Assembly: GCA_003130815.1 (NCBI GenBank)
Contig: QFDA01000001.1
Coordinates: 510,131 to 574,130 of the forward strand
Direction: 5' to 3'
DNA: 64,000 nt
Source: Bacteroidetes bacterium SCGC AAA795-G10
GTDB taxonomy: Bacteria > Bacteroidota > Bacteroidia > Flavobacteriales > Flavobacteriaceae
Of this stretch, positions 3,986-49,950 are shown piece after piece. The notes under the pieces were generated by a model, which had not been told where the DNA came from, searched no databases, and worked only from the letters and a program-made list of their open reading frames with translations. How positions within the stretch are numbered: the first letter of the stretch is position 1; each line of letters opens with the position of its first letter. The translations under genes and the position numbers were made by a program.

Positions 3986-4252
3986 TTGGATTTAAGGATT
4001 AACGAACATTTTGAGGTGCGCTTTGCGCAAACCTATCCAGAGTTCACAAAAAGATTAGTTGGTACATACGATAGTTTATCCTTCCAAGAGGTAAAAGTTT
4101 GCATGTTTATTAAGATGAGCTTTTCAAATCGTCAAATTCAAGATGAGCTCAATCTTTCTAAAAGTAGCCTTGCGAATTTAAGATCAAGTATTCGAAAAAA
4201 GATGTCCCTTAACAGAGGTCAAAGTTTAACTAATTCCATATTATGTTTTTAG
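3986..4252 (+). CDS. LuxR-like HTH DNA-binding domain protein (orphan or truncated regulator)
   Basis: 88 aa from a TTG start; [16 protein letters not shown]...[45 protein letters not shown] resembles the C-terminal HTH of Bacteroidota TPR/Y_Y_Y-LuxR regulators. Frame is open back to about 3920 without an ATG. Stop overlaps the ATG of the next gene. Confidence 0.55.
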
Positions 4253-19200: not shown

Positions 19201-20718
19201 GTTGGCGGAGCGGATGCTGACAAAGTGAAAATCGTAGGGGGAGAACCTGCAGCAAAAGGATCGCAGAAGTACTACTCGCCTTATGCTAAAGGGAAGAAAA
19301 ATCTAGGAGAAGGGTATCTGGCCTTTGTTAATGTACCTGATCCTAATAATCCTGATGATGCAAACAAGGATGGTGTTTACGAGGTAGAGATCGCCTATGT
19401 TAATACAACTGCTGGGGATCCTAACGTACCTATTCCTAAGTCTGAGCAGCGTATAGAAATCAATCCTAAAAGCGAGGAGATCTTTGAGCTGGATACCAAT
19501 ATCACTCCTGTGCAACAGGTCTCACCAGATCTGATTAGCTCTGATACGGATGCCGATGGAATTATCAACTCCCGGGACCCAGATGATGATGGAGATCACA
19601 TCTATAGCGAGTTCGAAGGCTCGGTAATTGAAGGTATAAAGGAAATAATTAGTAGTGCTTCGATAAATTCGTTAGACACAGACGGGGACGGTTTTGAGGA
19701 CTTTTTAGACCCTGACGATGATAATGACGGCGTCTTCAGTCTGTATGAAGGTACGGATCCTAACGGTGACTTCAATCCTAATGATGCTATTGACAGTGAC
19801 AGGGACGGTACGCCAGATTACCTGGATGCTGATGATGACGGAGACGGCATTGCCTCTATTGATGAGTCGCCTGACTTAGATCAAGACGGTATCCCAACCG
19901 ATGCCATGGACTTTGACGGGGACCGTACGCCAGATTATTTAGATACCGATGATGAGAACGATGGGGTGCCTTCTAAGTATGAGGTCCTACAAACAGGAAG
20001 AAGCGCAAGAGCAGTCGTGCTAGATACCGATAGGGATGGTACTGCAGACCATCATGATTTAGATGACGACAACGATGGGGTGCCTTCAATCTTCGAGATC
20101 ACAGAGCCTGGAGAAAACTTTGCCTTAGATACCGACGGGGATGGTATCTTAGATCATGTTGATCCTGATGACGACCAGGACGGACTGCTTACTATAGAGG
20201 AAGACCTTAATGGTAACGGTGACCCTCGGGATGATGACACAGACTTTGATGGTAAGGCCAACTATTTAGAGTCGCTGTACTTAGATGCAGATGGTGACGG
20301 AGTGGTGGATCAGTTAGATAGTGTTGACAGTGATCCTTATAATGATCAGGATGGGGACGGCTTCCCTAACTTAGATGAGACCCTAGCAGGTACAGATCCA
20401 CTTTTAGCAAGTAGCTTCCCAGAAGGTTTTGATAATGCGAGCTTAAGAGAGTCTATTGAGATTGTCAACTTCTTCTCTCCAAATGGAGACGGTAGGAATG
20501 ATACTTGGCAGGTAAGAGAAATTGATCGATATTTAAACAATCAAGTATGGATTTATTCTAGAACAGGAACAGAGTTGTTTACTGCTAAACCATATAATAA
20601 TGATTGGAATGGAACGTTAAATGGGGTAGAACTGCCTGCAGGAAGTTACTACTATCGCATAGATTTAGACGGCAACGGTAGTGTTGATTTTGAAGGATGG
20701 TTCTATCTTACAAGATAA
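4243..20718 (+). CDS. Giant multidomain cell-surface adhesin (5491 aa) with T9SS type-B C-terminal sorting domain
   Basis: Single uninterrupted ORF. N-terminal hydrophobic signal ([18 protein letters not shown]); DUF285/BspA repeats; Ig-like domains; FG-GAP repeats; LamG-like segment; cadherin-like segment; TSP3 DxDxDG repeats; C-terminus [38 protein letters not shown]...[23 protein letters not shown] matches gliding-motility-associated/T9SS type-B CTDs. Confidence 0.95.
4495..4860 (+). repeat. DUF285/BspA-like repeat block 0 (short, degenerate)
   Basis: [52 protein letters not shown]-terminal Cys cap (WCFPNN...PAC). Confidence 0.8.
5191..6380 (+). repeat. DUF285/BspA-like repeat block 1 (about 11 units of about 25 aa / 75 nt)
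   Basis: Repeated [21 protein letters not shown](D/N)IGS; N-cap [22 protein letters not shown]-cap [10 protein letters not shown]...WGTC. Confidence 0.9.
6685..7771 (+). repeat. DUF285/BspA-like repeat block 2 (about 10 units)
   Basis: Same 25-aa unit, with the same N-cap ([11 protein letters not shown]) and C-cap ([10 protein letters not shown]...WGVC). Confidence 0.9.
7946..9170 (+). repeat. FG-GAP repeat block 1 (7 units; predicted 7-bladed propeller)
   Basis: Seven copies of (T/V)Q(L/V)[45 protein letters not shown](Y/F). Confidence 0.85.
9490..9831 (+). other. Cupredoxin-like insert domain
   Basis: [33 protein letters not shown]...[13 protein letters not shown]; candidate type-1 Cu ligands His (codon 9631), Cys (9784), His (9793), Met (9802). 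Confidence 0.6.
10456..11675 (+). repeat. FG-GAP repeat block 2 (7 units; predicted 7-bladed propeller)
   Basis: Seven copies of the same unit, starting [32 protein letters not shown] and ending [32 protein letters not shown]. Confidence 0.85.
12121..13158 (+). repeat. DUF285/BspA-like repeat block 3 (about 9 units)
   Basis: [22 protein letters not shown]-cap, 25-aa units, [20 protein letters not shown]...WGTC C-cap. Confidence 0.9.
14320..14990 (+). other. LamG/concanavalin A-like domain within the giant adhesin
   Basis: [37 protein letters not shown]...[11 protein letters not shown]...[30 protein letters not shown]...[36 protein letters not shown]. Confidence 0.75.
16075..19060 (+). repeat. 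Thrombospondin type-3 (TSP3) Ca-binding repeat array with a 357-nt higher-order period
   Basis: Dense [22 protein letters not shown]...GTDPxDPxSxPxDTDxDGLxDxEE units. The NDG(Y/F) register falls at 16231, 16588, 16945, 17197, 17554, 18025, 18382 and 18739. Confidence 0.93.
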
Positions 20719-20720
20719 TT

Positions 20721-21635
20721 ATGATAAGAAAAATTACTTTACTCTTCTTACTTATACTCCCCTTGATTGGCTTTAGCCAGCAGGAATCTTATTACTCTTT
20801 GTATAGATATAACATGAATGTAATCAACCCGGCTTTTGCTGGAGCAGATGCTGCCAACATGCTTTCTTTTACCTCAAGAAGCCAGTGGGCTTCTGTACAA
20901 GATGCCCCCAGAACACTCGCCTTTGCCTACTCTTCAGCTAGAGAAAATAATGTAGGCCTGGGACTGTCTGTTGTCTCTGACAAAGTCTTTGTCGAACAAC
21001 AAACCTTTGCCTATGTGGACTTCTCTTACAAACTACAGATGAGTGGGGAGTCAATCCTTTTTCTAGGGCTTAAAGCAGGAGGAAACTTTTATAGTTCTGA
21101 TCCTACAGAGCTCACTACTTACTCCCCCGTGGGAGATCCTAGTAAGGTGAGTCTTAGTAAATTTAATCCCAATGTGGGAGCAGGTGCTTATTTTAAAGCA
21201 ACTAATTATTGGATTTCTTTTTCTATACCAAGGCTTTTTAATGTCAACAGAGAAAATGACAACCTAGCCATTACTGCCAAAGATCGTGTACATACCTATC
21301 TAGGAGCTGGAGTCGATTTACCCGTCTCTAGTGGACTCTATCTAAAGCCTTCGCTGATGCTTAGAAAAGTAAAAGGTCTGCCAACAACCGCTGATATTAC
21401 AGCAATGGTAAGCTGGCAAAATCAATTTGATGTCGGACTCTCTGTTAGAACCAACAGCTCTATGGCACTTATGACAGTAGTTGCTCTGGGCATGTTTGAT
21501 ATCGGTTACGCCTATGAAACTCCAACAGATAACGGACTCTCACAACTAAACTTAAGAACACACGAACTGGTCTTTAGAATTAAACTAGGGCAAGGAGATC
21601 AATCCTCTAAAGAAGGACCTGAAAGCCCAGAATAA
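20721..21635 (+). CDS. PorP/SprF family type IX secretion system membrane protein
   Basis: MIRKITLLFLLILPLIGFSQQESYYSLYRYNMNVINPAFAGADAANMLSFTSRSQWA is a hallmark PorP/SprF N-terminus. Start re-assigned from 20697 to the ATG at 20721, just after the adhesin stop. Confidence 0.93.
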   Translation: MIRKITLLFLLILPLIGFSQQESYYSLYRYNMNVINPAFAGADAANMLSFTSRSQWASVQDAPRTLAFAYSSARENNVGLGLSVVSDKVFVEQQTFAYVDFSYKLQMSGESILFLGLKAGGNFYSSDPTELTTYSPVGDPSKVSLSKFNPNVGAGAYFKATNYWISFSIPRLFNVNRENDNLAITAKDRVHTYLGAGVDLPVSSGLYLKPSLMLRKVKGLPTTADITAMVSWQNQFDVGLSVRTNSSMALMTVVALGMFDIGYAYETPTDNGLSQLNLRTHELVFRIKLGQGDQSSKEGPESPE

Positions 21636-36788: not shown

Positions 36789-36955
36789 ATACGTTATTTA
36801 GTACCTAAATATAATAATTAGTAGGCTGATTTAATAAGGGGGATCGGTTGTGGGGCAAAACAATAATTATTATCGAAGTGGTTTTTTAGAGTAGAGGATT
36901 TTTTCTCTATAGGAAATGATAAGGTAAAAATTTCCATTTTTTGTAAATTGCTAAA

Positions 36956-37615
36956 GTGAGAATACTCTTATTATTATCTTTAATACTCCTCCTATCATTA
37001 TCTTGTTCAGAAGAAAATAATGAAACTAGTATTTGTCCAGATGGTAATTGTTGGGTAAGACTTTATACAGATTTTGGTGAAGACTCTAATGGTTATCATA
37101 ATGTGACACCTGAATGGTTCTCAGAAACATCAGGAAGATTTAACCTTCATATTGAATCATCACCTACAGTTGGAAGGTGTCAATATAATGGTGTTACAGT
37201 TGTGAGTTCTAAACTTGATTCAAATACTTATTGGGAAGTACAAAGTGGTCTGTCTTTTACTTTTGGATTATACAATCCATTTGAAAGTTTATATACCCAA
37301 CAAGGAAATATCATAAAAGTAAGAGATACAACAGTTACAATTAATTATTTTCAAGGCGAAATAATTCCTGTAGTTCAAGAAAGTTCCATCAGTCATGATG
37401 TGAAAGATAAAATGAGTTGTTATGGTTGGGATAACCCAAAAAGTGGACCTACTCCTATAGAGACTGGTAATTGCATTTTGTATACAAAAAGAATTGTAGG
37501 TCCTTTAATTAGAGAAATGATAGGTGATACGATAAAAATATATTCTGAAACTTTCTTTGATTGTGGATTAAATTCAAAATCGGTAAGAGATTCAATTAGT
37601 GTAATCATAAAATAG
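36956..37615 (+). CDS. Putative lipoprotein, hypothetical
   Basis: GTG start; (M)RILLLLSLILLLSLSCSEEN lipobox; 219 aa. Confidence 0.55.
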   Translation: MRILLLLSLILLLSLSCSEENNETSICPDGNCWVRLYTDFGEDSNGYHNVTPEWFSETSGRFNLHIESSPTVGRCQYNGVTVVSSKLDSNTYWEVQSGLSFTFGLYNPFESLYTQQGNIIKVRDTTVTINYFQGEIIPVVQESSISHDVKDKMSCYGWDNPKSGPTPIETGNCILYTKRIVGPLIREMIGDTIKIYSETFFDCGLNSKSVRDSISVIIK

Positions 37616-37657
37616 AATTGACAGAATATTTTGTGCTAAGGACGATTTAAATTATTA

Positions 37658-37816
37658 CTATTTTTTTTTGTAAAGTTCAATAAATTTTTTAATCTCAGGA
37701 TCATTACTAAATGCGATCTTAGATTTACTAATTACTTCATTAATTTTGTTTTTAAAAGACTTTTCAATTATTGTTCTGGACATAGACTCAGGGGTAGCCT
37801 TATTTGCTAAAGACAT
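37658..37816 (-). CDS. Small ORF (52 aa) or 3' remnant of a longer gene
   Basis: Hand translation gives MSLANKATPESMSRTIIEKSFKNKINEVISKSKIAFSNDPEIKKFIELYKKK*; below the ORF-track cut-off; abuts the left 155-bp repeat. Confidence 0.3.
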   Translation of the reverse strand: MSLANKATPESMSRTIIEKSFKNKINEVISKSKIAFSNDPEIKKFIELYKKK

Positions 37817-37831
37817 TTAAGAGCCCATAGG

Positions 37832-37986
37832 GTATTTTAATTCATCAAGTTACTCTTCTTCTAATTGGTTAAATGGGATTCCTCTTTGGGATAAAAAAGA
37901 TGAAGAAGTTGGTCATGGATTAAAACCAAGTTGTCAAGTAAATTATAATTCTATAAAATTAATCTGATAGAAATTCTATAGCTACA
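37832..37986 (+). repeat. 155-bp direct repeat, left copy (3' end of the 43644 gene plus downstream)
   Basis: Matches 43985-44139 at constant offset 6153 with 4 mismatches (37844, 37847, 37965, 37979). Confidence 0.95.
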
Positions 37987-38645
37987 AAATAAATTAAACC
38001 GATTAAAAATAATATTGTACCGATTATTATCCAGTCATTTTTATTATTTTTTGAAATTACTTTTTTCTTATCCCTTAATGTCTTTTCAAGTTCAGTTACT
38101 AATAGTTCTATATTATGATTTGAACTATTTGATATTTTTAGTTTAGAAATACATTCTGAAGTTTTAGCTTCAAAAGCACTTGAGTCTTCTCTCCAACTGT
38201 TACTGGATGAGTTAATAGAATTCACACAATAAAGTCCAAACTCATAAATCTCATTCACACTACTAGGTATTGTAGTCGATAATACAATTTTAGCTATTTC
38301 TTGTTCATAGTTAAGATCATCAACATTCAATAAAGATATCTTCTGAGTCATTGTATTCAATAGTTCAGATTGTTTTCTTGAATTCAATTCATGTCCACAA
38401 CTTGGACAATTTAATTGGAATGATTTAACTGATTCTCCACAAGAGGGACATACTTTAATGTTTCCAACTTTTTCTTTGGTTTTGAGTTTTTTAGATTCAT
38501 GTAGTCTTCCATCAAGAATCATCTCAACCTCATCAGGATCCACATCAAATTTCTCAGCTTTTTTAATTATAACTGCTCTTTCCTTATCAGTTATTTCTCC
38601 ATCTGCAATTGCAAGTTCTATGAGTCTTTCTATCTCTGTATTCAT
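37959..38645 (-). CDS. TerB-like + zinc-ribbon + C-terminal TM protein (paralogue 1)
   Basis: MNTEIERLIELAIADGEITDKERAVIIKKAEKFDVDPDEVEMIL TerB-like; CPSCGESVKSFQLNCPSCG zinc ribbon; C-terminal hydrophobic helix. Confidence 0.75.
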   Translation of the reverse strand: MNTEIERLIELAIADGEITDKERAVIIKKAEKFDVDPDEVEMILDGRLHESKKLKTKEKVGNIKVCPSCGESVKSFQLNCPSCGHELNSRKQSELLNTMTQKISLLNVDDLNYEQEIAKIVLSTTIPSSVNEIYEFGLYCVNSINSSSNSWREDSSAFEAKTSECISKLKISNSSNHNIELLVTELEKTLRDKKKVISKNNKNDWIIIGTILFLIGLIYFVAIEFLSD

Positions 38646-38652
38646 AAATTTT

Positions 38653-39459
38653 TTAATATTCTTCTAGCAATTCTACTTTGTTTTTCAGATTTTTCACTCT
38701 ATAATTATGGATTGGTTTTATTATAAATATAAGGAGAAGTGATATTAAAAGTAGAACTCCTACTCCATACTCATAGTCAGAAATAAAATAAAAAACCCAT
38801 GTTGAAGCCAATGAAATAAAAAGTAAATACAGTGAAATTCTAGCAAATTGTTTTCTTTTCTTCAAATAAATTTCTTCGAAATAAAAGGACGTTTTAAATA
38901 AACTTTTTATGTTTTCCGATATCACTAAAATTTTTTTGTTTAATTCAGATTCTATCCCACTTTTGTTTGAAAAACTTATCTTTAAGATTATTTCTTTTGA
39001 TTTAAAATAAAGTACGTCATTAATGTACACCTGTTCAAATGAATTTGGACTTTCTATCACAAGACTTTTTAAAAACATCAACAGTTCAATAAGACTATTA
39101 ATATCTTTAGGAGTTGATAGATTTTTTATGGTGTCAACCAGGTTTTCAGAATTTATAATTTCATTCTTAAAATTGTTAACTACTTTACTTTGTATTTCAT
39201 TTTTAAAACTTGTTCCACAAGATTTGCAATAAGAATCGTACTGATACAATACGTCTCCACAATTTGAACATTTATAAAGATCCCCGTATTTTATTTTATT
39301 TTTATGTTCTTTGGACTTCTTTTCTTCTATAATTTTTTTAATCTCCTCAATATTTTCATCTAATTCTCTTGCTCGTGCAAAGATTAGTTTCTCCTCATCT
39401 GAGGAAATTTTACCATCTAATAAACATATATCAATAATTCTCTCTAAACTACCATTCAT
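38653..39459 (-). CDS. TerB-like + zinc-ribbon + TM protein (paralogue 2)
   Basis: ERIIDICLLDGKISSDEEKLIFARARELDENIEEI; CSNCGDVLYQYDSYCKSCG; two C-terminal TM segments. Confidence 0.72.
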   Translation of the reverse strand: MNGSLERIIDICLLDGKISSDEEKLIFARARELDENIEEIKKIIEEKKSKEHKNKIKYGDLYKCSNCGDVLYQYDSYCKSCGTSFKNEIQSKVVNNFKNEIINSENLVDTIKNLSTPKDINSLIELLMFLKSLVIESPNSFEQVYINDVLYFKSKEIILKISFSNKSGIESELNKKILVISENIKSLFKTSFYFEEIYLKKRKQFARISLYLLFISLASTWVFYFISDYEYGVGVLLLISLLLIFIIKPIHNYRVKNLKNKVELLEEY

Positions 39460-40342
39460 TTTTTATCATTCTAGTTAGTTTGTATTGGTAGATTAATCCA
39501 ACAATTGATAAATGCGTCTTTTTATCTAGATGTTTCATGAAATTATTCCCCCTTTTTATGTCAATAAATCCTTTTATAATCAAAATTGGAATTATTTGAA
39601 TAATTGATATATAAATTACTCCTAACAATTCCTCAGATATAGCCATTTTAAGCTCGGGTTTAGACATAATGAAAAGAATAATTGGAATAAGAATTACTGA
39701 AATCATTATTTGATTTAAATGTTTATTTCTTTTCATAATGCTTTTTTTTAAAAAGCGGGTTGTCATATAGTCAGTTTTTGAATTTTCTTTAAACTCTTCT
39801 ATGATTAAATCTAAAAAAGATAATCTCGAATCGTTTAATTTGATTAATTCAATTTTATCAATTATTCTACTGGAAAACTTTTGTAATTCATTATTAACTT
39901 GGGCTTGAAAAATTGACGGTTTTTTAAAAACTAGATTTTCTGAATTAACAAAGAGTTCTATTAAAGTTTGTGTGTCATTGGGAAATTTAAAACTTTGTAT
40001 AAATTTTATGACATCAGTAATATTCTTGTTTTTTACAACTTCGAAAAATTTGGAATTAAATTTTTGTATTTCGGTTGATGCAGATACATTCGAAAAATAA
40101 ATTCCACAATCTTTACATTTAACACTAAATAGTTTTATATCAGATCCGCAAGAAGGACATGACTTTATTGATGAGGATTTTTTAGAAATTTTGGAAGAAA
40201 TTTTATTTTCTATGTATAATGAAAGTTCGTCTCTATTAAATCCCATTTCTTCCCCTTTTGAAAGGATTTTATTTTTCTGTTCTAATGATAAACTCTCCAG
40301 ATCAGGAAAATCAACTAAAATTTTCTCAAATTCTCTAATCAT
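39449..40342 (-). CDS. Zinc-ribbon + TM protein (paralogue 3, divergent N-terminus)
   Basis: LEQKNKILSKGEEMGFNRDELSLYIENK; CPSCGSDIKLFSVKCKDCG; two C-terminal TM segments; overlaps paralogue 2 by 11 nt. Confidence 0.68.
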   Translation of the reverse strand: MIREFEKILVDFPDLESLSLEQKNKILSKGEEMGFNRDELSLYIENKISSKISKKSSSIKSCPSCGSDIKLFSVKCKDCGIYFSNVSASTEIQKFNSKFFEVVKNKNITDVIKFIQSFKFPNDTQTLIELFVNSENLVFKKPSIFQAQVNNELQKFSSRIIDKIELIKLNDSRLSFLDLIIEEFKENSKTDYMTTRFLKKSIMKRNKHLNQIMISVILIPIILFIMSKPELKMAISEELLGVIYISIIQIIPILIIKGFIDIKRGNNFMKHLDKKTHLSIVGLIYQYKLTRMIKNEW

Positions 40343-40674
40343 AAATCACTTTTGTTTAGACTGTATGTGATTAACAAGAATACTGATAATAAAATTCCTG
40401 AAAAAAGCACGTATGTATTATCTCCAAAAAATTTATTCAGTTTTAAAAAAGATAGAATGATCATAACTAAATAGAAAAAAAACGAGATGATTCTTGTATT
40501 GACAAGGGTTCTGGAGTTTTTACTTGTATAAATTAGAGAGGGAACTAGAATTGAAATTGATATAATTGAAAAACCAATAACAAGAATTAAATCTTTACTT
40601 TCATTATAAAGATAAAATCCAAGAGTTAATGATAATATAATACCTATAAAGGTTAAAGGTAGATTAAATCTCAT
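40339..40674 (-). CDS. Small multi-pass membrane protein
   Basis: About 4 hydrophobic segments; start re-assigned to MRFNLPLTF giving a 4-nt overlap with the upstream gene. Confidence 0.6.
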   Translation of the reverse strand: MRFNLPLTFIGIILSLTLGFYLYNESKDLILVIGFSIISISILVPSLIYTSKNSRTLVNTRIISFFFYLVMIILSFLKLNKFFGDNTYVLFSGILLSVFLLITYSLNKSDL

Positions 40675-40979
40675 AGTGAAATATCCTTTATTTTTGACCA
40701 TCCACTCATTCCATCACACCAAATCAGGTTTTCTTCATTCAAATCACCATTATTAAGGTGACTCATAATTTGATTTTTAGATAATGGCCCTTGAGGGATA
40801 TCATTTAATACAACATGATATTGTTTATCTTTAATTATAGGAACATCAGTGTTTTTAAATTGAGGAGTTTGCATTTGGCTCATACTTTGATTCATAATAC
40901 TCATCATCTGTTGTGCCATTGACATCCCTATCCCAAATTCTACTAACTTGTCAATAGAGTTAAACATATTATTATCCAT
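40671..40979 (-). CDS. GYF_2-domain protein
   Basis: YHVVLNDIPQGPLSKNQIMSHLNNGDLNEENLIWCDGMSGWSKIKDI. Confidence 0.75.
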   Translation of the reverse strand: MDNNMFNSIDKLVEFGIGMSMAQQMMSIMNQSMSQMQTPQFKNTDVPIIKDKQYHVVLNDIPQGPLSKNQIMSHLNNGDLNEENLIWCDGMSGWSKIKDISL

Positions 40980-40983
40980 AATT

Positions 40984-42408
40984 TTACTTTTTTGGAGGTG
41001 GGGGTGGGGGCGGCGTTGATTTGTTCGGTTGGCTTTTTGACCCCAATACTTCTTTCAAATCAAGAATGTTTGAAGCTTCACTCCAATCATTCATTCCCTC
41101 TGTCCACACCATTGATTTATTATTAAAAAGATTATTTTGTTTTAATTGATTTAACTGTGATTTATTAAAAGGGCCGGTCTTTTCTCCGTCAGCTGCTACA
41201 TAATACAATTTTTGTTGAGGTGTTGGTGGTGGCCCTCCTTGATTTGAATTTGGATCCATAGAATTGCCCATTTGATTCATCATATTTGCCATTTGGTTAC
41301 CCATAGCTCCTCCCATCATCATTCCAGTCATCATCCCTGCTGGATTCATTGAACCATCTCCTCCTCCTCCTAAATTCATATTCCCCATTTGGCCTAAACT
41401 TTCACCTGCTGTTTTAAGTACTTCTTTCTGAGCCTCAGTTAGTATATTAAGTTTATGAGTTTCAAAATTTGCAGATTCCGTTTGAAGTTTCTGAGCTCTT
41501 TGCATTTCCTCTCTTTGAACCTCTAATGTTTTTTCAAGGTTTTCAGAATTGATTCTTTGTTGATCTTGTAAATTTTTGATATTCACATCAGATTGAGCTT
41601 GAAGAGTATCAATTTCAACATCTGTTTGAGTTTGTACTTTTCTCTCAGTAATATCAGCTGTTAACGATCTTAATTTTCGATATGCTTCGCTTTCTTTATC
41701 AATATCAATCAGATCTATATTTAACATATTAAATTTTATTCCGAAGAGTTTTTCCAATTCACCAACAGTTTTACTCTTAACCTCATCGTTTATTTCATCA
41801 AGTTGAGTTTCAATTTGTACCACAGGGATATTATTTTTTTTAGGAACATTTATAACAGTCGTTTTGATATACTTGTTAATTGAAGGTCTCATTTTCTCTA
41901 TCATTTGTTCTGGAGAAATGTCTATCAACCTGTGAATTTTTATAAATTCTTTAGGATCATCAATTTGTGATAGTAACTGATATTTTACTGCACATTGAAC
42001 AGGGAAATCAATGTATCTTGGATCAAATACATCGAAATATGGAACTCTTCCTGAAAATTCAATTATAGGACTTAAATTAATGAAATATACTTCTGCTGGA
42101 AAGGGAGTCCCTCCTGCGTAAGCCATCCCAACTATTCCAGCAATTATTGGTAGGTTGGCCGTTTTAAGAATATCATCATAAGGTCCTTCAAGGAAATCTT
42201 GTACAGTTCCGTCTTTTTGTTTGTAAACGAAAACCGCCATTTCACCGTCTTTAACCCTAAGGGAACTACCAAACCTTATATTGTTTTCTTTTTTAGTAGA
42301 ATTTGCTTCATTTCCTTTTGGTCTCCATTTCCAGACCAAATAGTTTTCTTCATCACATCTGATGGAATCCATGATCCCACCTTCTTTTTTACTGTTAAAT
42401 AATCCCAT
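40984..42408 (-). CDS. SPFH-domain (YdjI/virion-core-like, Band_7_1) protein with C-terminal GYF_2 domain
   Basis: GSSLRVKDGEMAVFVYKQKDGTVQDFLEGPYDDILKTANLPIIAGIVGMAYAGGTPFPAEVYFINL...; C-terminal YYVAADGEKTGPFNKSQLNQLKQNNLFNNKSMVWTEGMNDWSEASNI. Confidence 0.85.
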   Translation of the reverse strand: MGLFNSKKEGGIMDSIRCDEENYLVWKWRPKGNEANSTKKENNIRFGSSLRVKDGEMAVFVYKQKDGTVQDFLEGPYDDILKTANLPIIAGIVGMAYAGGTPFPAEVYFINLSPIIEFSGRVPYFDVFDPRYIDFPVQCAVKYQLLSQIDDPKEFIKIHRLIDISPEQMIEKMRPSINKYIKTTVINVPKKNNIPVVQIETQLDEINDEVKSKTVGELEKLFGIKFNMLNIDLIDIDKESEAYRKLRSLTADITERKVQTQTDVEIDTLQAQSDVNIKNLQDQQRINSENLEKTLEVQREEMQRAQKLQTESANFETHKLNILTEAQKEVLKTAGESLGQMGNMNLGGGGDGSMNPAGMMTGMMMGGAMGNQMANMMNQMGNSMDPNSNQGGPPPTPQQKLYYVAADGEKTGPFNKSQLNQLKQNNLFNNKSMVWTEGMNDWSEASNILDLKEVLGSKSQPNKSTPPPPPPPKK

Positions 42409-42495
42409 GTTGTTTTAAATATTTTATATAAAAATTATTATTATTAATCAATTTAAATATGACTAAATTTAAGAATTTTATAATTATTGTATAAA

Positions 42496-42945
42496 GTGAA
42501 GATATTATATGTAGATCTTGATGGAGTAGTTGCTGATTTTGAAAAAGGGAAAAATAATCACCCTCTTTGTAATGTTTCACCATACAAGAGAAGACCTGAT
42601 AAATTACCTGGAATATATGAGAATTTAGATCCGATTAATGGAGCGATCGAATCCGTTAATCTACTTTTGCTAAGCACCAAATTTGATGTTTATTTTCTTT
42701 CAACTGCTCCATGGGATAACCCTAATGCATGGACCCATAAAAGGCTTTGGATTACAAAATATTTTGATGAAAAATTAATTCGAAAAAGATTAATACTATG
42801 TCATCATAAACAACTCATGATTGGAGATTATCTAATCGATGATAGAAGGTTTAATGGAGCTTCGGAATTTAAGGGAGATTGGATTCATTATGGAAGTGAA
42901 AATTTTCCAAATTGGAAAAGTGTTTTAAATTACTTGGGTTTATAG
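42496..42945 (+). CDS. 5'(3')-deoxyribonucleotidase-like HAD protein (NT5C family)
   Basis: GTG start; ILYVDLDGVVADFEKG, STAPWDNPNAWTHKRLWI, LIDDRRFNGASEFKGDWIHYG. Confidence 0.8.
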   Translation: MKILYVDLDGVVADFEKGKNNHPLCNVSPYKRRPDKLPGIYENLDPINGAIESVNLLLLSTKFDVYFLSTAPWDNPNAWTHKRLWITKYFDEKLIRKRLILCHHKQLMIGDYLIDDRRFNGASEFKGDWIHYGSENFPNWKSVLNYLGL

Positions 42946-43370
42946 TGTATTTTGATTCAATAATCTTAAGTGAATTATTAGACCAAATTATTGGACTTTA
43001 CTTTATAAATCATACGTTTAGTTTAAAAGGCAGTTTAGAATGGTATCCTATTACTGAAAAACAAAAAGAAAGGCATTTTAAAAAGTTTGGAAAAGAATTA
43101 AAACCTCAAAGGAGAAGATATAAAATAAAGGAGGTTTTTTGGGAAGGAAAAAAGGTGGATGATAAAGGAGGTTATAGTTCATCCCACCATCATGTAGTTA
43201 TTAGTGATATTGAAGATCACGGTGTTTTTTATGTTATGAATGACCATAAAGTAGGAAATATGGGTCAAACATTTAGGTATAAATTTCAAATAAAAGACTT
43301 TCAAAAATCACTGAATCTTTCTGATTTAAATATTGAATTGTTAGATAAGACGATGACAATGATTCGGTAA
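42912..43370 (+). CDS. Hypothetical protein
   Basis: 152-aa ORF overlapping the end of the previous gene; true start uncertain. Confidence 0.4.
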   Translation: MEKCFKLLGFIVYFDSIILSELLDQIIGLYFINHTFSLKGSLEWYPITEKQKERHFKKFGKELKPQRRRYKIKEVFWEGKKVDDKGGYSSSHHHVVISDIEDHGVFYVMNDHKVGNMGQTFRYKFQIKDFQKSLNLSDLNIELLDKTMTMIR

Positions 43371-43573
43371 TTTTTATTGAGGTAAAAAATCTATTCGCCT
43401 TTCATGATCAAATCTGTAAAATCAAATAGGATTTATTAATGCCTGTCCCTTTCCAAATTCAAAGTTTTATGTAGATTAATTTTCAATTAGCTATATAACT
43501 GTGTAAATAAAAATTCATCTCTTTTAGTTGTTGTTAAGTGCCTTTTCAAAAAATGACTGATTTTAAAATCATA

Positions 43574-43581
43574 TAACTTTG
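43574..43581 (+). promoter_or_regulatory. Candidate Bacteroidota -7 element (TAnnTTTG)
   Basis: TAACTTTG about 60 nt upstream of the 43644 ORF; no clear -33 element checked. Confidence 0.3.
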
Positions 43582-43643
43582 TTAGGTAATAAAAGGATGA
43601 TATAAAATCCCTACTTAAATCCTAAAATTTTTTAAATTTATTA

Positions 43644-44123
43644 ATGAACTTCAACAGATTAATAAAGGATTCAAAAAAAGGATTAAAAAGAAAAATTTCA
43701 TCGAGAAGGGAAAAAACGTCAGTATCAGTTGAGGAATTCTTTAATCTTTCCGAAAAGTATTTCAAACAGAATAATGAGGGTGAAAACCTTATCATTAAAT
43801 ATGATTCAAAAGATAAAGAGATACTTGTATTTATTTTGAGGTGGTATTATAACTTATGGATTGATATTAATGAAAAATCAATTGAGGTTTACTCTTCTTT
43901 TCCAAAAGAATTTGAAATTATTAGTGAGGTCAATAAATTAAATCATCCTCACACTCCAAAAACTTTTAAAAAAGGAACTAAAATGTATTTTAATTCGTCT
44001 AGTTACTCTTCTTCTAATTGGTTAAATGGGATTCCTCTTTGGGATAAAAAAGATGAAGAAGTTGGTCATGGATTAAAACCAAGTTGTCAAGTAAATTATA
44101 ATTCTATAAAATTAATCAGATAG
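43644..44123 (+). CDS. Hypothetical protein (159 aa) whose 3' end is duplicated at 37.8 kb
   Basis: ORF; C-terminal FNSSSYSSSNWLNGIPLWDKKDEEVGHGLKPSCQVNYNSIKLIR is shared with the fragment at 37832-37967. Confidence 0.55.
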   Translation: MNFNRLIKDSKKGLKRKISSRREKTSVSVEEFFNLSEKYFKQNNEGENLIIKYDSKDKEILVFILRWYYNLWIDINEKSIEVYSSFPKEFEIISEVNKLNHPHTPKTFKKGTKMYFNSSSYSSSNWLNGIPLWDKKDEEVGHGLKPSCQVNYNSIKLIR

Positions 44124-44139
44124 AAATTCTACAGCTACA
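43985..44139 (+). repeat. 155-bp direct repeat, right copy
   Basis: See left copy at 37832-37986. Confidence 0.95.
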
Positions 44140-44152
44140 TTAAATACTTAAA

Positions 44153-44193
44153 AAACCCCTAAACCTTTGTTTTATAAAGGATTAGAGGTTTTT
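44153..44193. terminator. Terminator-like hairpin next to a tRNA 3'-end remnant
   Basis: AACCCCTAAACCTTT...AAAGGATTAGAGGTTTTT imperfect long stem with flanking A/T tracts. Confidence 0.55.
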
Positions 44194-44210
44194 GTTGGTG
44201 GTCCCACCTG
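44192..44210 (-). pseudogene. tRNA 3'-end remnant (att-like), copy of the end of the tRNA at 49951
   Basis: TTGTTGGTGGTCCCACCTG is identical to 49947-49965 (19 bp), covering CCA, acceptor 3' strand and start of the T stem; similarity decays afterwards. Confidence 0.6.
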
Positions 44211-44318
44211 TCCCAGAATCAGGGTTATATATTTACTGATTATCAAATAGTTAGGTGTTTAAGGTGGTTCGAAGTTCGAACCAACCGAAAAATCATGATT
44301 TTTTGACTTTACCCTAGT

Positions 44319-44717
44319 TCAAGTTCTTTTAGGACTATTGTTTTGAATTGTCACATGTAGAAAATAAAAAACTATTCCCCCAATAATTGTCCATATTACG
44401 TCATTCCAATCAAAAACTCCTCTTCCGGGTGTATAGATTGTTATGAACTCATTTCCAATTAGACCAATCATAGAAATGATTATTGACCACTTTAATCTAT
44501 TTCTGTAAAAAGATGTATTAGGTTTAAAAATCTCTGGAATAGTTACATAAAACAAACTAGGTAGACCAATACCTGGAAGGAAGTTAGGAATTACTCCAAG
44601 AAAATAAATTATTAGGTCATTTCCTCCTTCATAATTTGGTCTGATGTAATCTTGAACCAATCCGAATGTTAAAAATGAAAGTCCAAAAACTATGTAATAG
44701 GAGTATTTTCTGTTCAT
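44319..44717 (-). CDS. Hypothetical membrane protein
   Basis: 132 aa with about 4 hydrophobic segments. Confidence 0.45.
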   Translation of the reverse strand: MNRKYSYYIVFGLSFLTFGLVQDYIRPNYEGGNDLIIYFLGVIPNFLPGIGLPSLFYVTIPEIFKPNTSFYRNRLKWSIIISMIGLIGNEFITIYTPGRGVFDWNDVIWTIIGGIVFYFLHVTIQNNSPKRT

Positions 44718-45108
44718 TCCCTTTCAAAATTAAATATTTTGGTTCGAAACTAAGTGGGGTAATGATTGAAAATTAGTTTCCCTAAAATCCAAATTTTTTT
44801 TAATTTTGACTTATAAAATGAAAAAAGATGCAATTAATTAGACAAAAAATCAGATTTTCGCCCGTAGTTTTTGTTTGGTCAATTGGAAAGAAATTCAGAA
44901 AACTTTCACCAGATAATTTAATAATCGGGCTCACAGAACTGCAGTTAGTTCGAAAATTATCGAGGTTAATCTTCCCTTCCAAACTCACTTTTTATAGGAA
45001 GTAAACTTTTCGAATTTAAGTTTTATGTAGTAATCTTACTAAAGAGATAGCTAAGGAATTAACATCAATCTCTATGTTTACTTCTATTTGATATTTGTAT
45101 TTAGTATT

Positions 45109-45528
45109 ATGAAAAAGTTAGACACAGTAATTCTTACGGTTTCATTTTGGTCCAGTATTATCACTTATGCACAAAAAATCGATTCCATAAATCCTTCAGA
45201 GGAGAAAATTAAAGTAAATAAGGTGTTTGATGAGCATGGAAATCTAATCAGATATGATTCAATTTATAGCTATTCCAGTACTAACTACAATATGGATACC
45301 AAAAAAATGGACTCTTTAATTAAGCAATTTTTTCCAAATCGAGGAACTATGCCATTTAAAGAACCATTTGATGATTTTGATTTTGGTTTCCCAAACTTGT
45401 TTAATCAAAACTTTAGAAACCTTGATTCCATTTGGCAACAAAGGTTAAAAGGGCAACAAAAATTATTTGATAGTATTTTCAATAGGCATCAACCCAAAAA
45501 AGAGAAATCATCCACAAATAAAATCTAA
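45109..45528 (+). CDS. Hypothetical secreted protein
   Basis: MKKLDTVILTVSFWSSIITYAQK signal-like N-terminus (start moved to the ATG at 45109). Confidence 0.5.
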   Translation: MKKLDTVILTVSFWSSIITYAQKIDSINPSEEKIKVNKVFDEHGNLIRYDSIYSYSSTNYNMDTKKMDSLIKQFFPNRGTMPFKEPFDDFDFGFPNLFNQNFRNLDSIWQQRLKGQQKLFDSIFNRHQPKKEKSSTNKI

Positions 45529-45566
45529 ATAATTATTCAATCAAATTAATACATGCTATATCAACT

Positions 45567-46496
45567 ATGGATATACAAATAGAAAAACTAACTAAGACCT
45601 ACGGACCTCAAACCGCTGTAAACGATATCAGTTTTGACGTTAAGACAGGAGAAGTTCTTGGATTTTTAGGCCCTAACGGAGCAGGAAAATCTACCACAAT
45701 GAAAATGATTACCGGCTATATAGGCATTGAAAAAGGGGATATTCAAATAGGAGGAAAAAGCGTTACGGACCCTACGTATGATTTAAAAAGGCACATTGGT
45801 TATCTCCCTGAAAATAACCCCTTATACCTTGATATGCCTGTGATAGACTATTTGGAGTTTTGTGCGTCCCTCCAGGGTATAGAAAAACAGAATATCAATA
45901 AAAGAATTCGTGAAATGGTAGGGGTTTGTGGTTTAAATAGGGAAAAGCATAAAAAAATAGGAGAACTATCTAAGGGATACAGGCAACGTGTAGGCCTTGC
46001 TCAAGCCATGATTCACGACCCTGAAATTCTGGTTTTAGATGAACCTACAACAGGGTTAGACCCCAACCAAATTATAGAAATTAGAAAACTAATTCGTGAC
46101 TTGGGAAAAGAAAAGACCGTTATACTCAGCACACACATTCTACCAGAGGTAGAGGCTACATGCGACCGTATTCTTATAATCAATAGAGGTAAGATTGTAG
46201 CTAATGGCACATCGGAAACACTTAGAAAGCAGTCGCAAGGGAATGAAATATTAAAGCTTCGTATTGAGGATGGTAAAGCAGATAAGATTTTAAAATCCCT
46301 ACGGACATTGGACACTGTCCAATCGGTAGCATGTATTGAACAAAATCAAAATGTATTTGAAGTACAGAGCCTTGTCGAACAGACCTCTAAACGAAATGTA
46401 TTTAACCTGTGCGTTCAAAACAAATGGGTGCTGACGGAACTCACACCATTGGAAACGAAACTTGAGGATATTTTCAGAAACTTAACATTAAACTAA
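45567..46496 (+). CDS. gldA: ABC transporter ATP-binding protein, GldA-like
   Basis: MDIQIEKLTKTYGPQTAVNDISFDVKTGEVLGFLGPNGAGKSTTMKMITGYI; LSKGYRQRVGLAQAMIHDPEILVLDEPTTGLDPNQI. Confidence 0.85.
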   Translation: MDIQIEKLTKTYGPQTAVNDISFDVKTGEVLGFLGPNGAGKSTTMKMITGYIGIEKGDIQIGGKSVTDPTYDLKRHIGYLPENNPLYLDMPVIDYLEFCASLQGIEKQNINKRIREMVGVCGLNREKHKKIGELSKGYRQRVGLAQAMIHDPEILVLDEPTTGLDPNQIIEIRKLIRDLGKEKTVILSTHILPEVEATCDRILIINRGKIVANGTSETLRKQSQGNEILKLRIEDGKADKILKSLRTLDTVQSVACIEQNQNVFEVQSLVEQTSKRNVFNLCVQNKWVLTELTPLETKLEDIFRNLTLN

Positions 46497-46498
46497 AT

Positions 46499-47221
46499 AT
46501 GAAAACAATTTGGATAATAGCTAAACGAGAATTGGCAACTTTTTTCGACTCCCTTATAGCCTATATTATCTTAGGACTTTTTTTAGGATTTAGCGGCTTT
46601 TTTACTTGGTTGTATGGCAATGATATTTTTCTAGTAGGTCAAGCCAATTTGCGCGTATTCTTTAGCATTGCTTCATGGAGTCTTTTCTTTTTCATTCCTG
46701 CCATAACCATGAAAATGTTGGCTGAGGAGAGAAAAACAGGAACATTGGAACTTTTGCTTACCAAGTCGGTATCAGACCGACAATTGATTCTTGGAAAATT
46801 CTTAGGGTCGGTCTTGTTAGTCTGTATAGCCCTATTGGCGACCTTACCTTATGTTATAACTGTTTCCAGTATTGGTAATTTAGATAATGGTGGAACTATT
46901 TGTGGCTATTTTGGCTTACTGCTAATGAGCATCACATATACTGCAATTGGAATTTTTGCAAGTAGTATAACCACAAATCAAATTGTGGCATTTATGACCG
47001 CCCTTTTTATCGGGTTATTTTTCCATATCATTTTTGGCGTTTTGGCCCAGAACTTTACGGGAAGTATAGGACAGATTTTTGAAACCTTAAATCTTCAATC
47101 CCATTTTGAATCCATTTCCAGAGGCGTTATAGATTCTAAAGACCTGGTTTATTTTCTATCTATAACAGTTTTGGGGCTTTATCTTGGAGAGTCGTCATTA
47201 TCAAAAAGACATTCTTCTTAA
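46499..47221 (+). CDS. gldF: ABC transporter permease, GldF-like
   Basis: 240-aa ABC-2 permease (MKMLAEERKTGTLELLLTKSVSDRQLILGKFLGS) directly downstream of the ATPase. Confidence 0.75.
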   Translation: MKTIWIIAKRELATFFDSLIAYIILGLFLGFSGFFTWLYGNDIFLVGQANLRVFFSIASWSLFFFIPAITMKMLAEERKTGTLELLLTKSVSDRQLILGKFLGSVLLVCIALLATLPYVITVSSIGNLDNGGTICGYFGLLLMSITYTAIGIFASSITTNQIVAFMTALFIGLFFHIIFGVLAQNFTGSIGQIFETLNLQSHFESISRGVIDSKDLVYFLSITVLGLYLGESSLSKRHSS

Positions 47222-47271
47222 TCAATTATTAAAGCATGAATCTGACCATTGAAAAAAATAAAAACACATAG

Positions 47272-48774
47272 ATGAAAAAGACAAACGTAACCATACTATT
47301 AATTTTAAGTATACTGTTATTTGTGAACTTATTGTCCGAGGAATATTATTTTCGAATAGATTTAACCGAAGATAAGCAATATACTTTAAGCGAAGCAACT
47401 GAAGATATTATGAAATCGCTAGAAAATCCAATTACGGTCAAAGCTTATTTTACAGAAAACCTTCCGCCAGATATTGCAAAAACCAAGAATAATTTTGAAG
47501 AGTACCTAATAGAATATGCTCGAAAATCAAATGATAATCTAGTATACACCTTTATTGACCCCAACGAAAATGAGAAAACAGAGCGAGAAGCTGTGGAAGC
47601 TGGTATTAATCCAGTCATGATTAATGTTAGGGAAAAGGACCAAATGAAACAGCAAAAAGCTTTTTTAGGAGCCGTTCTAGAATTGGAAGAACAAAAAGAA
47701 GTTATTCCATTTATACAACCTGGAGCCCCTTTGGAATACCTCTTGTCGTCATCCATAAAAAAGATAGCGGTAACCGATAAACCTGAAGTTAGGCTCATGG
47801 AAGGTAATGGACAAGCCTCCATTTCAGAACTTTCTCAGGTAAAAACAGCTCTAGATGTTTTATACGATTTTAATTCTACTAAAGTAAATGATATAACACC
47901 TGTTCCAGAAAACACAAAGACTTTGGCTATTATTCGTCCTACGGATACCATTAATAATGAAAGTCTTAACCAGTTAGACAAATTCCTAGAAAAAGGAGGT
48001 AATCTATTTATAGCTTTGAATAGGGTAAATGGTGATTTAAATAATGCCTATGGAACTAGTCAGAATACAGGTTTGGAAAAATGGCTGGAGTCAAAAGGTT
48101 TAGAAGTCCGAGAAGACTTTGTGATAGATGCACAATGTGCTAGCGTTGGTGTACAACAACGACAGGGATACTTTAATTTCACTTCCAATGTTTCTTTTCC
48201 TTATATCCCAATCATAAGTCAATTTGCAGACCATCCAGCTACTAAAGGTCTGGAAGCCGTAGTGATGCAGTTTGTTAGTTCATTAAAATTTGCTGCCAAA
48301 GATTCCCTTACCACATTTACTCCTTTGGCCTTTTCATCTAAAAATTCTGCAAAATTAAAAGCTCCACAGTTTTTTGACATTCAAAAGCAATGGACTGAAA
48401 TGGATTTTAATGCGCCTAATCAGATAGTTGCAGGGGTTTTGGAGCAAACACATGATAATGGTAACAAGTCTCGTATTTTTGTGGTTGCGGATGGAGATTT
48501 TCCTATTAATAGTGGACAACAGCAGTTACAATCAGGAAATGTCAATCTTATGGTCAATGCTATTGATTGGTTAAGCGATGACACAGGATTAATTGACTTA
48601 AGGAATAAAGGGATAAGATATCGCCCAATAGACGCCTTGGAAGATAGTACTAAAACGACCCTGAAATATTTCAATTTTTCACTGCCTATTATTCTAGTAA
48701 TCATCTATGGTGTGGTAAGGATGCAGATGAACAGAAATAAGCGGAGTAAAAGAATAGAAGAGAACTATGAATAA
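47272..48774 (+). CDS. gldG: GldG family protein (ABC-type auxiliary component)
   Basis: EEYYFRIDLTEDKQYTLSEATEDIMKSLENPITVKAYFTENLPPDIAKTKNNFEEYLIEYARKS is typical of GldG. Confidence 0.8.
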   Translation: MKKTNVTILLILSILLFVNLLSEEYYFRIDLTEDKQYTLSEATEDIMKSLENPITVKAYFTENLPPDIAKTKNNFEEYLIEYARKSNDNLVYTFIDPNENEKTEREAVEAGINPVMINVREKDQMKQQKAFLGAVLELEEQKEVIPFIQPGAPLEYLLSSSIKKIAVTDKPEVRLMEGNGQASISELSQVKTALDVLYDFNSTKVNDITPVPENTKTLAIIRPTDTINNESLNQLDKFLEKGGNLFIALNRVNGDLNNAYGTSQNTGLEKWLESKGLEVREDFVIDAQCASVGVQQRQGYFNFTSNVSFPYIPIISQFADHPATKGLEAVVMQFVSSLKFAAKDSLTTFTPLAFSSKNSAKLKAPQFFDIQKQWTEMDFNAPNQIVAGVLEQTHDNGNKSRIFVVADGDFPINSGQQQLQSGNVNLMVNAIDWLSDDTGLIDLRNKGIRYRPIDALEDSTKTTLKYFNFSLPIILVIIYGVVRMQMNRNKRSKRIEENYE

Positions 48775-48793
48775 TCAACTAAAGATTTAACTC

Positions 48794-49750
48794 ATGAAAA
48801 AAAATAACATATTAATATTAGTATTAGTAGGTCTAGTATTACTATTTGTAACAACAAATTATTTTAAAAAGCATAGCAGTGCTATCTTTAAAGCTGAAGT
48901 GATTCAGTTTGATTCTTCTACGTTGAATAAAATAATTATTCGTCCGCCATCTTCTTCGGAGGAGGAGCCAATTATTATTTCAAAAGATGATGATAATTGG
49001 CAAGTTGCCCAAGGCACTATAAAAACCCTGGCGAATCAATCTACTGTTAATAGTGTACTAGGTCAGTTAGAGCAAATAAAAACCGAACAGTTAGTCTCTA
49101 AAACCAAAGAAAAATGGGAAACATATGAGTTAACGGATACTTTAGCACAATGTGTTGAAATTTACCAACAGGGCAAGGAAAAGCCAACAAAGCTATATTT
49201 TGGAAAAACAACATATAAACAATCCCAAAATCCGGGATATGGAGGACGCCCCTCTGTTGATGCCTCTACCTATTTCAGAATCAATGAAACTCCCAGTACA
49301 TACGCTATAAAAGGCGGACTTTCCAATACATTTAAACGGAAATTTAATGCATGGCGAAATACAGAGTTCATCAAGCTTAATAAAGATTTAATTACACGAT
49401 TAAAATTTGAGACTAATAAAAACAACACTTTTTCTCTTTCCAAAAAAGAGTCTGATTGGTTTATGGGAGAGATTTCACCAGATTCTACCAAAGTGGCTCA
49501 ATATCTTAATACCTTACGTTACCAAAGTAGCTCACAGTTTGTTGATGGATTTAAGCCTAAAGGTAATGCGGATTATACCTTGACAATCCAAGGTGATTCA
49601 ACTGAAGACTTGATTATAAAAGCTTACAGGGATTCTACAACAAACAAATACATCCTGAACGCATCCCAATATCCAAATGTCTTTATTGAGAGTGATTCAA
49701 CAGAGCTATTCAAACGCCTATTTGTAAATCAAGATTATTTTTTGAAATAA
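48794..49750 (+). CDS. DUF4340 domain-containing protein
   Basis: 318 aa; position after GldG and YFGKTTYKQSQNPGYGGRPSVDASTYFRINETPSTYAIKGGLSNTFKRKFNAWRN typical of DUF4340 proteins. Confidence 0.7.
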   Translation: MKKNNILILVLVGLVLLFVTTNYFKKHSSAIFKAEVIQFDSSTLNKIIIRPPSSSEEEPIIISKDDDNWQVAQGTIKTLANQSTVNSVLGQLEQIKTEQLVSKTKEKWETYELTDTLAQCVEIYQQGKEKPTKLYFGKTTYKQSQNPGYGGRPSVDASTYFRINETPSTYAIKGGLSNTFKRKFNAWRNTEFIKLNKDLITRLKFETNKNNTFSLSKKESDWFMGEISPDSTKVAQYLNTLRYQSSSQFVDGFKPKGNADYTLTIQGDSTEDLIIKAYRDSTTNKYILNASQYPNVFIESDSTELFKRLFVNQDYFLK

Positions 49751-49908
49751 TCAAATAATGAAGCAATGAGATGAAATGATAGACTCTCATAAAAACTTTT
49801 GAAAGTGCTGTTATTACTAGCAACAAAGATAATTCAAAGATTGGTCCAAAATTGAGGGGTACGGGATATCAAGCCAAAAACTAGGGACAAATCTGTGGAC
49901 AAATAAGA

Positions 49909-49944
49909 AAAGGCGCAAACTGCAAAATCGCTGTTAACGCCTTT
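49909..49944 (-). terminator. Terminator-like hairpin downstream of the tRNA
   Basis: AAAGGCG...CGCCTTT inverted repeat just 3' of the minus-strand tRNA. Confidence 0.5.
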
Positions 49945-49950
49945 GATTGT

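What the first reader, a model, noticed from the sequence alone, without database searches (positions are those of the whole stretch)
37959..42408. Candidate undescribed membrane-stress/defence-like operon: SPFH-GYF + GYF protein + small membrane protein + three TerB-like/zinc-ribbon/TM paralogues
Six tightly packed co-oriented genes (small gaps or overlaps). The SPFH protein resembles the YdjI/virion-core type and carries a C-terminal GYF_2 domain that recurs in the neighbouring 102-aa protein. Three tandem paralogues combine an N-terminal TerB-like helical segment (clear in two), a CPSCG-type zinc ribbon and C-terminal TM helices. This recalls Bacillus YdjFGHI (PspA, zinc-ribbon membrane protein, SPFH protein), but no PspA is present and TerB plus GYF modules are used instead. 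The whole operon sits between 155-bp direct repeats. Function as a membrane-associated stress or anti-phage assembly is inference.
Basis: partly seen in the sequence, partly recalled or inferred. Interest (0 to 1): 0.82.

Follow-up and report, generated by a model that had tools for sequence, protein, structure and literature searches.

The report
Mobile SPFH–GYF membrane-scaffold operon
A rare but recurrent gene set in Bacteroidota, carried here on a strain-specific 7-kb island, appears to encode a ring-forming SPFH protein with its own membrane anchor and zinc-ribbon adaptors; it is a conserved, undescribed relative of the Bacillus YdjGHI membrane-stress module, and its job (envelope surveillance or phage defence) is still unproven.

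Summary
Six overlapping or near-abutting genes encode SPFH–GYF, a small GYF protein, a 4-TM protein and three zinc-ribbon (ZR) paralogues. It is a real conserved unit: among 29 orthologous SPFH–GYF loci (38–56% identity), a ZR gene lies close by in 25/27, the 4-TM gene in 22/25 and the small GYF gene in 14/25 with enough flank. A reciprocal search from ZR1 alone found two of these operons. Distribution is very sporadic: 2/398 Bacteroidota genomes, 0/38 other genomes of the genus. The operon lies on a 7.3-kb insertion, absent from a sister genome, in a hotspot that in another congener holds a type II methyltransferase cassette.

Corrections: the TerB part is only half a TerB repeat and is optional; the ZR core is zinc ribbon plus an unnamed 'FPxPxTKxDIxEF' domain. 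The direct repeats also enclose three other genes; each copy is a ZR1/ORF43644 junction. PspA is absent from the whole assembly. Best reading: a PspA-independent, YdjI-type SPFH scaffold, anchored by the 4-TM protein and cross-linked by GYF–polyproline contacts. Defence is plausible but unproven. New leads: operonic Castor/Pollux-type ion channels in two distant relatives, and a ZR+SPFH–GYF pair on a phage contig.

The parts
40984..42408 (-). SPFH (Band_7_1, YdjI type) + coiled coil + Met/Gly-rich segment + GYF_2 + polyproline tail, 474 aa
   Evidence: Pfam; alignment; AlphaFold model and Foldseek to stomatin/HflKC/flotillin (E~1e-6) and GltJ GYF
40671..40979 (-). Small GYF_2 adaptor, 102 aa, conserved N-terminal 'FxSxDrLvEFGmgmamaQQM' segment
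   Evidence: Pfam; 15-member alignment
40339..40674 (-). 4-TM protein (TM4), about 111 aa; the listed ORF starts at 40701 but orthologs align with the second Met; no Pfam family
   Evidence: 26 family members; start site
39449..40342 (-). ZR3: degenerate N-terminus, zinc ribbon, conserved helical domain, two TM helices
38653..39459 (-). ZR2: half-TerB, zinc ribbon, conserved helical domain, two TM helices
37959..38645 (-). ZR1: half-TerB, CPSCG zinc ribbon, conserved helical domain, one C-terminal TM helix
   Evidence: reciprocal search
37658..37816 (-). 52-aa remnant of a fourth ZR-like gene (part of the helical domain only)
   Evidence: iterated ZR HMM
37832..37986 (+). Left copy of the 155-bp direct repeat: 3' end of ORF43644 (+) joined to the 3' end of ZR1 (-)
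43985..44139 (+). Right copy of the 155-bp direct repeat, with a remnant of the ZR1 C-terminus (VAVEFLSD*) on the - strand
43644..44123 (+). ORF43644, 159 aa, no family; found in no other genome of the genus
42487..42945 (+). NT5C-like (5' deoxynucleotidase family) gene, divergent from the operon; companion on the island, not conserved with the operon
   Evidence: PF06941, E=6e-10; no match in other loci
36838..44149 (.). Island: insertion relative to sister genome G230, which has about 111 bp here

Best explanation
The operon encodes a self-contained inner-membrane scaffold of the YdjI-type SPFH class that does not use PspA. The SPFH-GYF subunits, which have no predicted TM helix, oligomerise into a ring or cage. 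They are held at the membrane by the conserved 4-TM protein and, here, also by the C-terminal TM helices of the ZR proteins. The GYF domains (in SPFH and in the small adaptor) bind polyproline segments, most likely the conserved Pro-rich tail next to each SPFH GYF domain, and so cross-link subunits and recruit partners. The ZR proteins are client or sensor adaptors: a constant zinc ribbon plus helical domain that docks on the scaffold, and variable ends (half-TerB at the N-terminus; TM helices, TM2 or soluble extensions at the C-terminus). The likely role is envelope surveillance or protection under membrane perturbation, phage attack included, gained and lost as an accessory island. Shown: gene content, conservation, domain identities, predicted SPFH and GYF folds, island status, lack of PspA. 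Inferred: ring formation, GYF-polyproline contacts, adaptor role, stress function.
For: Conserved co-occurrence: ZR 25/27, TM4 22/25, small GYF 14/25, and reciprocal discovery of the operons in G451 and G532 from ZR1 alone. Motif-level conservation of SPFH-GYF, including the Met/Gly-rich segment and the Pro-rich tail in nearly all complete orthologs. Folds: SPFH to stomatin/HflKC/flotillin, GYF to GltJ/GIGYF2/Smy2. YdjI-type family by PF13421; B. subtilis YdjI works with the membrane proteins YdjG/YdjH and affects membrane fluidity (PMC8581546). The SPFH tree gives one 100/100 clade separated by long branches from the Flavobacteriaceae SPFH-GYF proteins. Sporadic distribution and an insertion in a hotspot.
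Against: No functional data. No stress regulator or PspA in the operon. TM4 is missing in L068 and in the phage-borne pair (L096), so it is not always needed as anchor. AlphaFold was run on monomers only; the SPFH model has modest confidence (pLDDT 75, pTM 0.48). No complex prediction tests GYF-polyproline binding.
Confidence: 0.5

Rival explanations
1. Anti-phage defence system: the SPFH complex senses infection at the membrane and triggers protection or abortive infection, with ZR proteins or linked channels as effectors.
For: Very patchy distribution (2/398 Bacteroidota, 0/38 congeners); insertion at a hotspot that holds a type II methyltransferase and a PD-T4-3-like ORF in a congener; TerB domains are known in the Shango and Bunzi defence systems and in Dionysus (PMC10952713, PMC12926258); a ZR+SPFH-GYF pair lies on a phage contig; a PDDEXK nuclease inside one operon.
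Against: No convincing PADLOC hit in any operon gene; 135 neighbours of relatives show few defence families; no recognisable effector in most copies; the hotspot comparison rests on one congener.
Confidence: 0.25
2. Channel-regulating scaffold: like animal stomatin-family proteins, the SPFH platform organises or gates ion channels or transporters at the membrane.
For: Castor/Pollux-type channels in tight co-oriented linkage in two distant loci (L071, L085; L085 also an iGluR-type channel), against strong Castor/Pollux homologs in only about 7 of 149 Bacteroidota genomes. Ion_trans directly after TM4 in the sister loci L074 and L083, and a VTT-domain membrane protein after TM4 in L066.
Against: Most copies, the window's included, have no channel in the operon; Ion_trans is common in the phylum (98/149), so that case alone is weak; noticed after the fact in 30 loci.
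Confidence: 0.12
3. Ordinary housekeeping variant of the SPFH-GYF/zinc-ribbon pair found in about a quarter of Flavobacteriaceae-level relatives, with no special role.
For: That pair shares SPFH (PF13421-like) + GYF with the Pro-rich tail.
Against: Its SPFH forms a separate clade on long branches; its partner is a different 4xCxxC zinc-ribbon protein similar to ZR only across the ribbon (37 columns, hhalign probability 59%); the loci examined have no TM4 or ZR helical domain.
Confidence: 0.08

Closest known systems
Bacillus subtilis pspA-ydjGHI operon (YdjI SPFH protein; PMC8581546, PMC9239133, PMC11237479)
   Same: YdjI-type SPFH (Band_7_1) protein without TM helix, co-transcribed with a zinc-ribbon membrane protein and a second membrane protein
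   Different: No PspA, no TPM-domain YdjH; ZR has half-TerB and a different helical domain instead of the YpeB-like domain; GYF domains instead of a C-terminal zinc ribbon; a new 4-TM protein; patchy, island-borne
SPFH-GYF + 4xCxxC zinc-ribbon pair of related Flavobacteriaceae genomes (L032-L041)
   Same: SPFH with C-terminal GYF and Pro tail, zinc-ribbon membrane partner directly downstream
   Different: Separate SPFH clade; partner shares only the ribbon; no TM4, no small GYF, no half-TerB
TerB-containing defence systems (Shango, Bunzi, Dionysus)
   Same: Use of TerB-type modules in accessory, mobile systems
   Different: Only half a TerB repeat here, optional; no match to PADLOC models
Myxococcus GltJ (zinc finger and GYF adaptor)
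   Same: GYF domain fold (7z3c)
   Different: GltJ is a single gliding-motility protein; no SPFH partner (own knowledge)

Membership tests
YdjI-type SPFH (Pfam Band_7_1, PF13421) | Match to the Band_7_1 profile over the cut-off, SPFH fold | tested here: met
   65.9 bits against cut-off 24; Foldseek to SPFH structures
GYF_2 (PF14237) | Match over the cut-off in SPFH C-terminus and in the small protein | tested here: met
   49.3 and 43.8 bits against 25.8; GYF fold
pspA-ydjGHI / PSP system | PspA/IM30 homolog in operon or genome | tested here: not met
   No PF04012 match in the assembly (89% complete), control rings in B. subtilis
pspA-ydjGHI / PSP system | TPM-domain membrane protein (YdjH) | tested here: not met
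   No TPM match in any operon protein
pspA-ydjGHI / PSP system | SPFH forms a membrane complex that depends on its operon's membrane proteins | not testable with these tools
   Needs localisation or pull-down experiments
TerB (PF05099) | Full TerB domain, over the cut-off | tested here: not met
   19.4 bits against 24.4, only about 45 aa; 13/33 members match weakly; a canonical TerB protein elsewhere in the assembly is 40% identical over 40 aa and has two such halves; no PDB fold match for ZR1
Known anti-phage systems (PADLOC-DB 2023) | Match of operon proteins to system models | tested here: not met
   Only two weak, partial hits on ZR1, E about 0.003
Known anti-phage systems (PADLOC-DB 2023) | Protects against phage | not testable with these tools
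   Needs phage challenge

The most novel reading that the evidence does not exclude
A mobile bacterial counterpart of stomatin-type channel regulation: the SPFH-GYF/TM4/ZR platform detects membrane insult (for example phage DNA entry) and controls ion flux through a linked or host channel, giving envelope protection or abortive depolarisation.
Probability: 0.12. Interest if true: 0.88.

Novelty: new variant of a known kind. Interest (0 to 1): 0.6.

Why it matters
The roles of most bacterial SPFH proteins are unclear. This is a compact, apparently co-transferred set with its own membrane anchor, adaptors and GYF/polyproline glue, free of PspA, so the SPFH platform can be studied alone. Its island location makes an immune or envelope-protection role testable in one transfer experiment, and the linked ion channels offer a direct test of whether SPFH control of channels exists in bacteria. 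It also defines two unnamed protein families (TM4, and the ZR helical domain).

Tried and rejected
Full TerB fold in ZR1: model confident (pLDDT 88) but no PDB match better than E=0.5; kept only as half-TerB. TM4 as DUF3021: 2/25 members, weak; rejected. ZR as a relative of the Flavobacteriaceae 4xCxxC protein: similarity limited to the ribbon; rejected. Prophage or plasmid origin: of the loci found only L096 is a supported phage contig; L055 is an unverified record without annotation; plasmids give only 22-26% SPFH relatives; rejected as the general case. Defence islands around relatives: few defence families among 135 neighbours, no matched background was run. Literature searches found no description; only open-licence papers were covered. 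One script used the wrong window key, redone.

Full report
Observation. In transcription order on the - strand: SPFH-GYF (42408-40984), GYF (40979-40671), a 4-TM protein (TM4), ZR3, ZR2, ZR1 (ends 37959). Orthologs show that TM4 starts at nt 40674, so the junctions are, in order, +4, -4, -4, -11 and +7 nt, as in a translationally coupled operon. Pfam gives Band_7_1 and GYF_2 over their cut-offs; zinc ribbons are visible but sub-threshold; TerB is sub-threshold.

Is it a unit? A scan of 85,488 species genomes with the SPFH-GYF protein gave 26 near-full-length relatives (38-56% identity on the best segment), mostly Bacteroidota (Muribaculaceae, Prevotellaceae, Paludibacteraceae, Chitinophagaceae, Flavobacteriales), plus a few MAGs labelled Verrucomicrobiota, Kiritimatiellota or Bacillota whose binning I could not check. 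With a fecal 'phage' record and two same-order genomes that were found from ZR1 and not from SPFH, 29 loci were compared. Where enough flank exists, a ZR gene is present in 25/27, TM4 in 22/25 and the small GYF gene in 14/25. The usual order is ZR(1-3)-SPFH-(GYF)-TM4; the window is unusual in having its three ZRs downstream.

Anatomy. SPFH-GYF: SPFH domain, long coiled coil, Met/Gly-rich stretch ('GMNPAGMMxGMxMGGAMGxQMAxMMNQMG'), GYF, Pro-rich tail; the tail is present in nearly all complete orthologs. The AlphaFold model (pLDDT 75; core about 85-95) matches stomatin, HflK/C and flotillin chains (E about 1e-6) and GltJ GYF. TM4: about 115 aa, four hydrophobic segments, no Pfam family. ZR: half-TerB ('aDGxiTxkEr...A...gidxdE', three helices), one zinc ribbon, then a conserved helical domain ('FPxPxTKxDIxEFL...WxxKxEQxxxKA...D') that is in no searched library, then variable ends with 0-4 hydrophobic segments. 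The half-TerB assignment rests on weak Pfam hits and on 40% identity over 40 aa to a canonical TerB protein of the same genome, which carries two such halves; no solved fold matched. It is degenerate in ZR3 and absent in L055, L080 and L096.

Relation to known systems. The SPFH protein is YdjI-type, and B. subtilis YdjI works with the membrane proteins YdjG (zinc ribbon) and YdjH (TPM) to place PspA (PMC8581546, PMC9239133, PMC11237479). Here there is no TPM protein, and no PspA anywhere in the 89%-complete assembly. Of 201 genomes of the same family, 55 (the window's own included) match the SPFH-GYF query, nearly all through a different, shorter SPFH-GYF protein; in the ten such loci examined (L032-L041) a 4xCxxC zinc-ribbon protein follows. 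The two SPFH groups are separated by long branches with full support, and their zinc-ribbon partners are alike only over the ribbon. So the operon works like, but is not a member of, the PspA-YdjGHI system.

Mobility. None of 38 other genomes of the genus has the SPFH protein, and 2 of 398 phylum genomes do. The tree puts the window with a freshwater Flavobacteriales MAG (L060, 100/97) and not with the same-family G451, which fits transfer, though several deep forks are open. Against sister genome G230 the stretch 36838-44149 is replaced by 111 bp. The site lies between a sulfatase gene and tRNA-Met. In G226 the same site holds 9 kb with a C5 type II methyltransferase and a PD-T4-3-like ORF. 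No recombinase was seen. Each 155-bp repeat copy is the convergent junction of the ORF43644 3' end and the ZR1 3' end; the right copy still encodes 'VAVEFLSD*', the C-terminus of ZR1. The layout (junction-operon-NT5C-ORF42912-ORF43644-junction) fits a tandem duplication with loss of outer parts, or a single-crossover insertion of a circle; which one is not decided. Beyond the left repeat a 52-aa ZR-like remnant remains.

Context of relatives. Neighbours are diverse and mostly housekeeping. Exceptions: Castor/Pollux-type channels tightly linked in L071 and L085 (with an iGluR-type channel in L085), Ion_trans right after TM4 in the sister loci L074 and L083, a VTT-domain protein after TM4 in L066, and a PDDEXK nuclease between ZR and SPFH in L062. 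Strong Castor/Pollux homologs occur in about 7/149 Bacteroidota genomes. Assuming about 8 neighbour genes per locus and 3000 genes per genome, I would expect about 0.004 such links in 30 loci and saw 2. This estimate is rough and made after the fact. Ion_trans is common (98/149), so that link is weak. One IMG/VR contig (L096) with phage genes (MazG-like; a phage polymerase family) carries a ZR-TM2 protein and SPFH-GYF.

Verdict. Real, conserved, mobile and undescribed in the open literature searched; a new variant of YdjI-type SPFH modules. Membrane scaffold: most likely (0.5 for the stated mechanism). Defence: possible (0.25). Channel regulation: a new lead (0.12). No function has been tested.

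Noticed in passing
L094 2800-12013 (G226), equivalent to window 36907-49947: At the same hotspot a congener carries a type II methyltransferase, a PD-T4-3-like short ORF, a MazG-like ORF and a 494-aa protein with a weak Cas4-type match.
   Followed up: partly
L096 5122-7275: Phage contig with a ZR protein (double zinc ribbon + helical domain + TM2) next to SPFH-GYF; no half-TerB and no TM4.
   Followed up: partly
L071 4011-5894; L085 9807-12814; L074 3081-3875; L083 9630-10421: Ion-channel genes (Castor/Pollux, iGluR-type, Ion_trans) tightly linked to the operon.
   Followed up: partly
L051 1024-1767: Half-TerB segment in a 247-aa membrane protein with a possible nuclease-like C-terminal region (no Pfam hit).
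   Followed up: no
window 4243-20718: 5491-aa secreted protein with BspA/DUF285-like repeats and 'DTDGDG'-type calcium-binding-like repeats, followed by a PorP/SprF-like gene (20697-21635): looks like a giant T9SS-exported adhesin (by eye only).
   Followed up: no
window 44737-49802 versus L095 and L093: The neighbouring gldA/F/G-like ABC genes are 97% identical in G229 but missing at this site in G230: the whole stretch up to tRNA-Met (49951) is variable in the genus.
   Followed up: partly
L061 10046-10975; 233-243-aa ORFs in L064, L065, L069, L070, L073: Extra GYF_2 proteins in the gut Bacteroidales versions of the operon; two GYF_2 stretches in the two members scanned (L061, L064).
   Followed up: no
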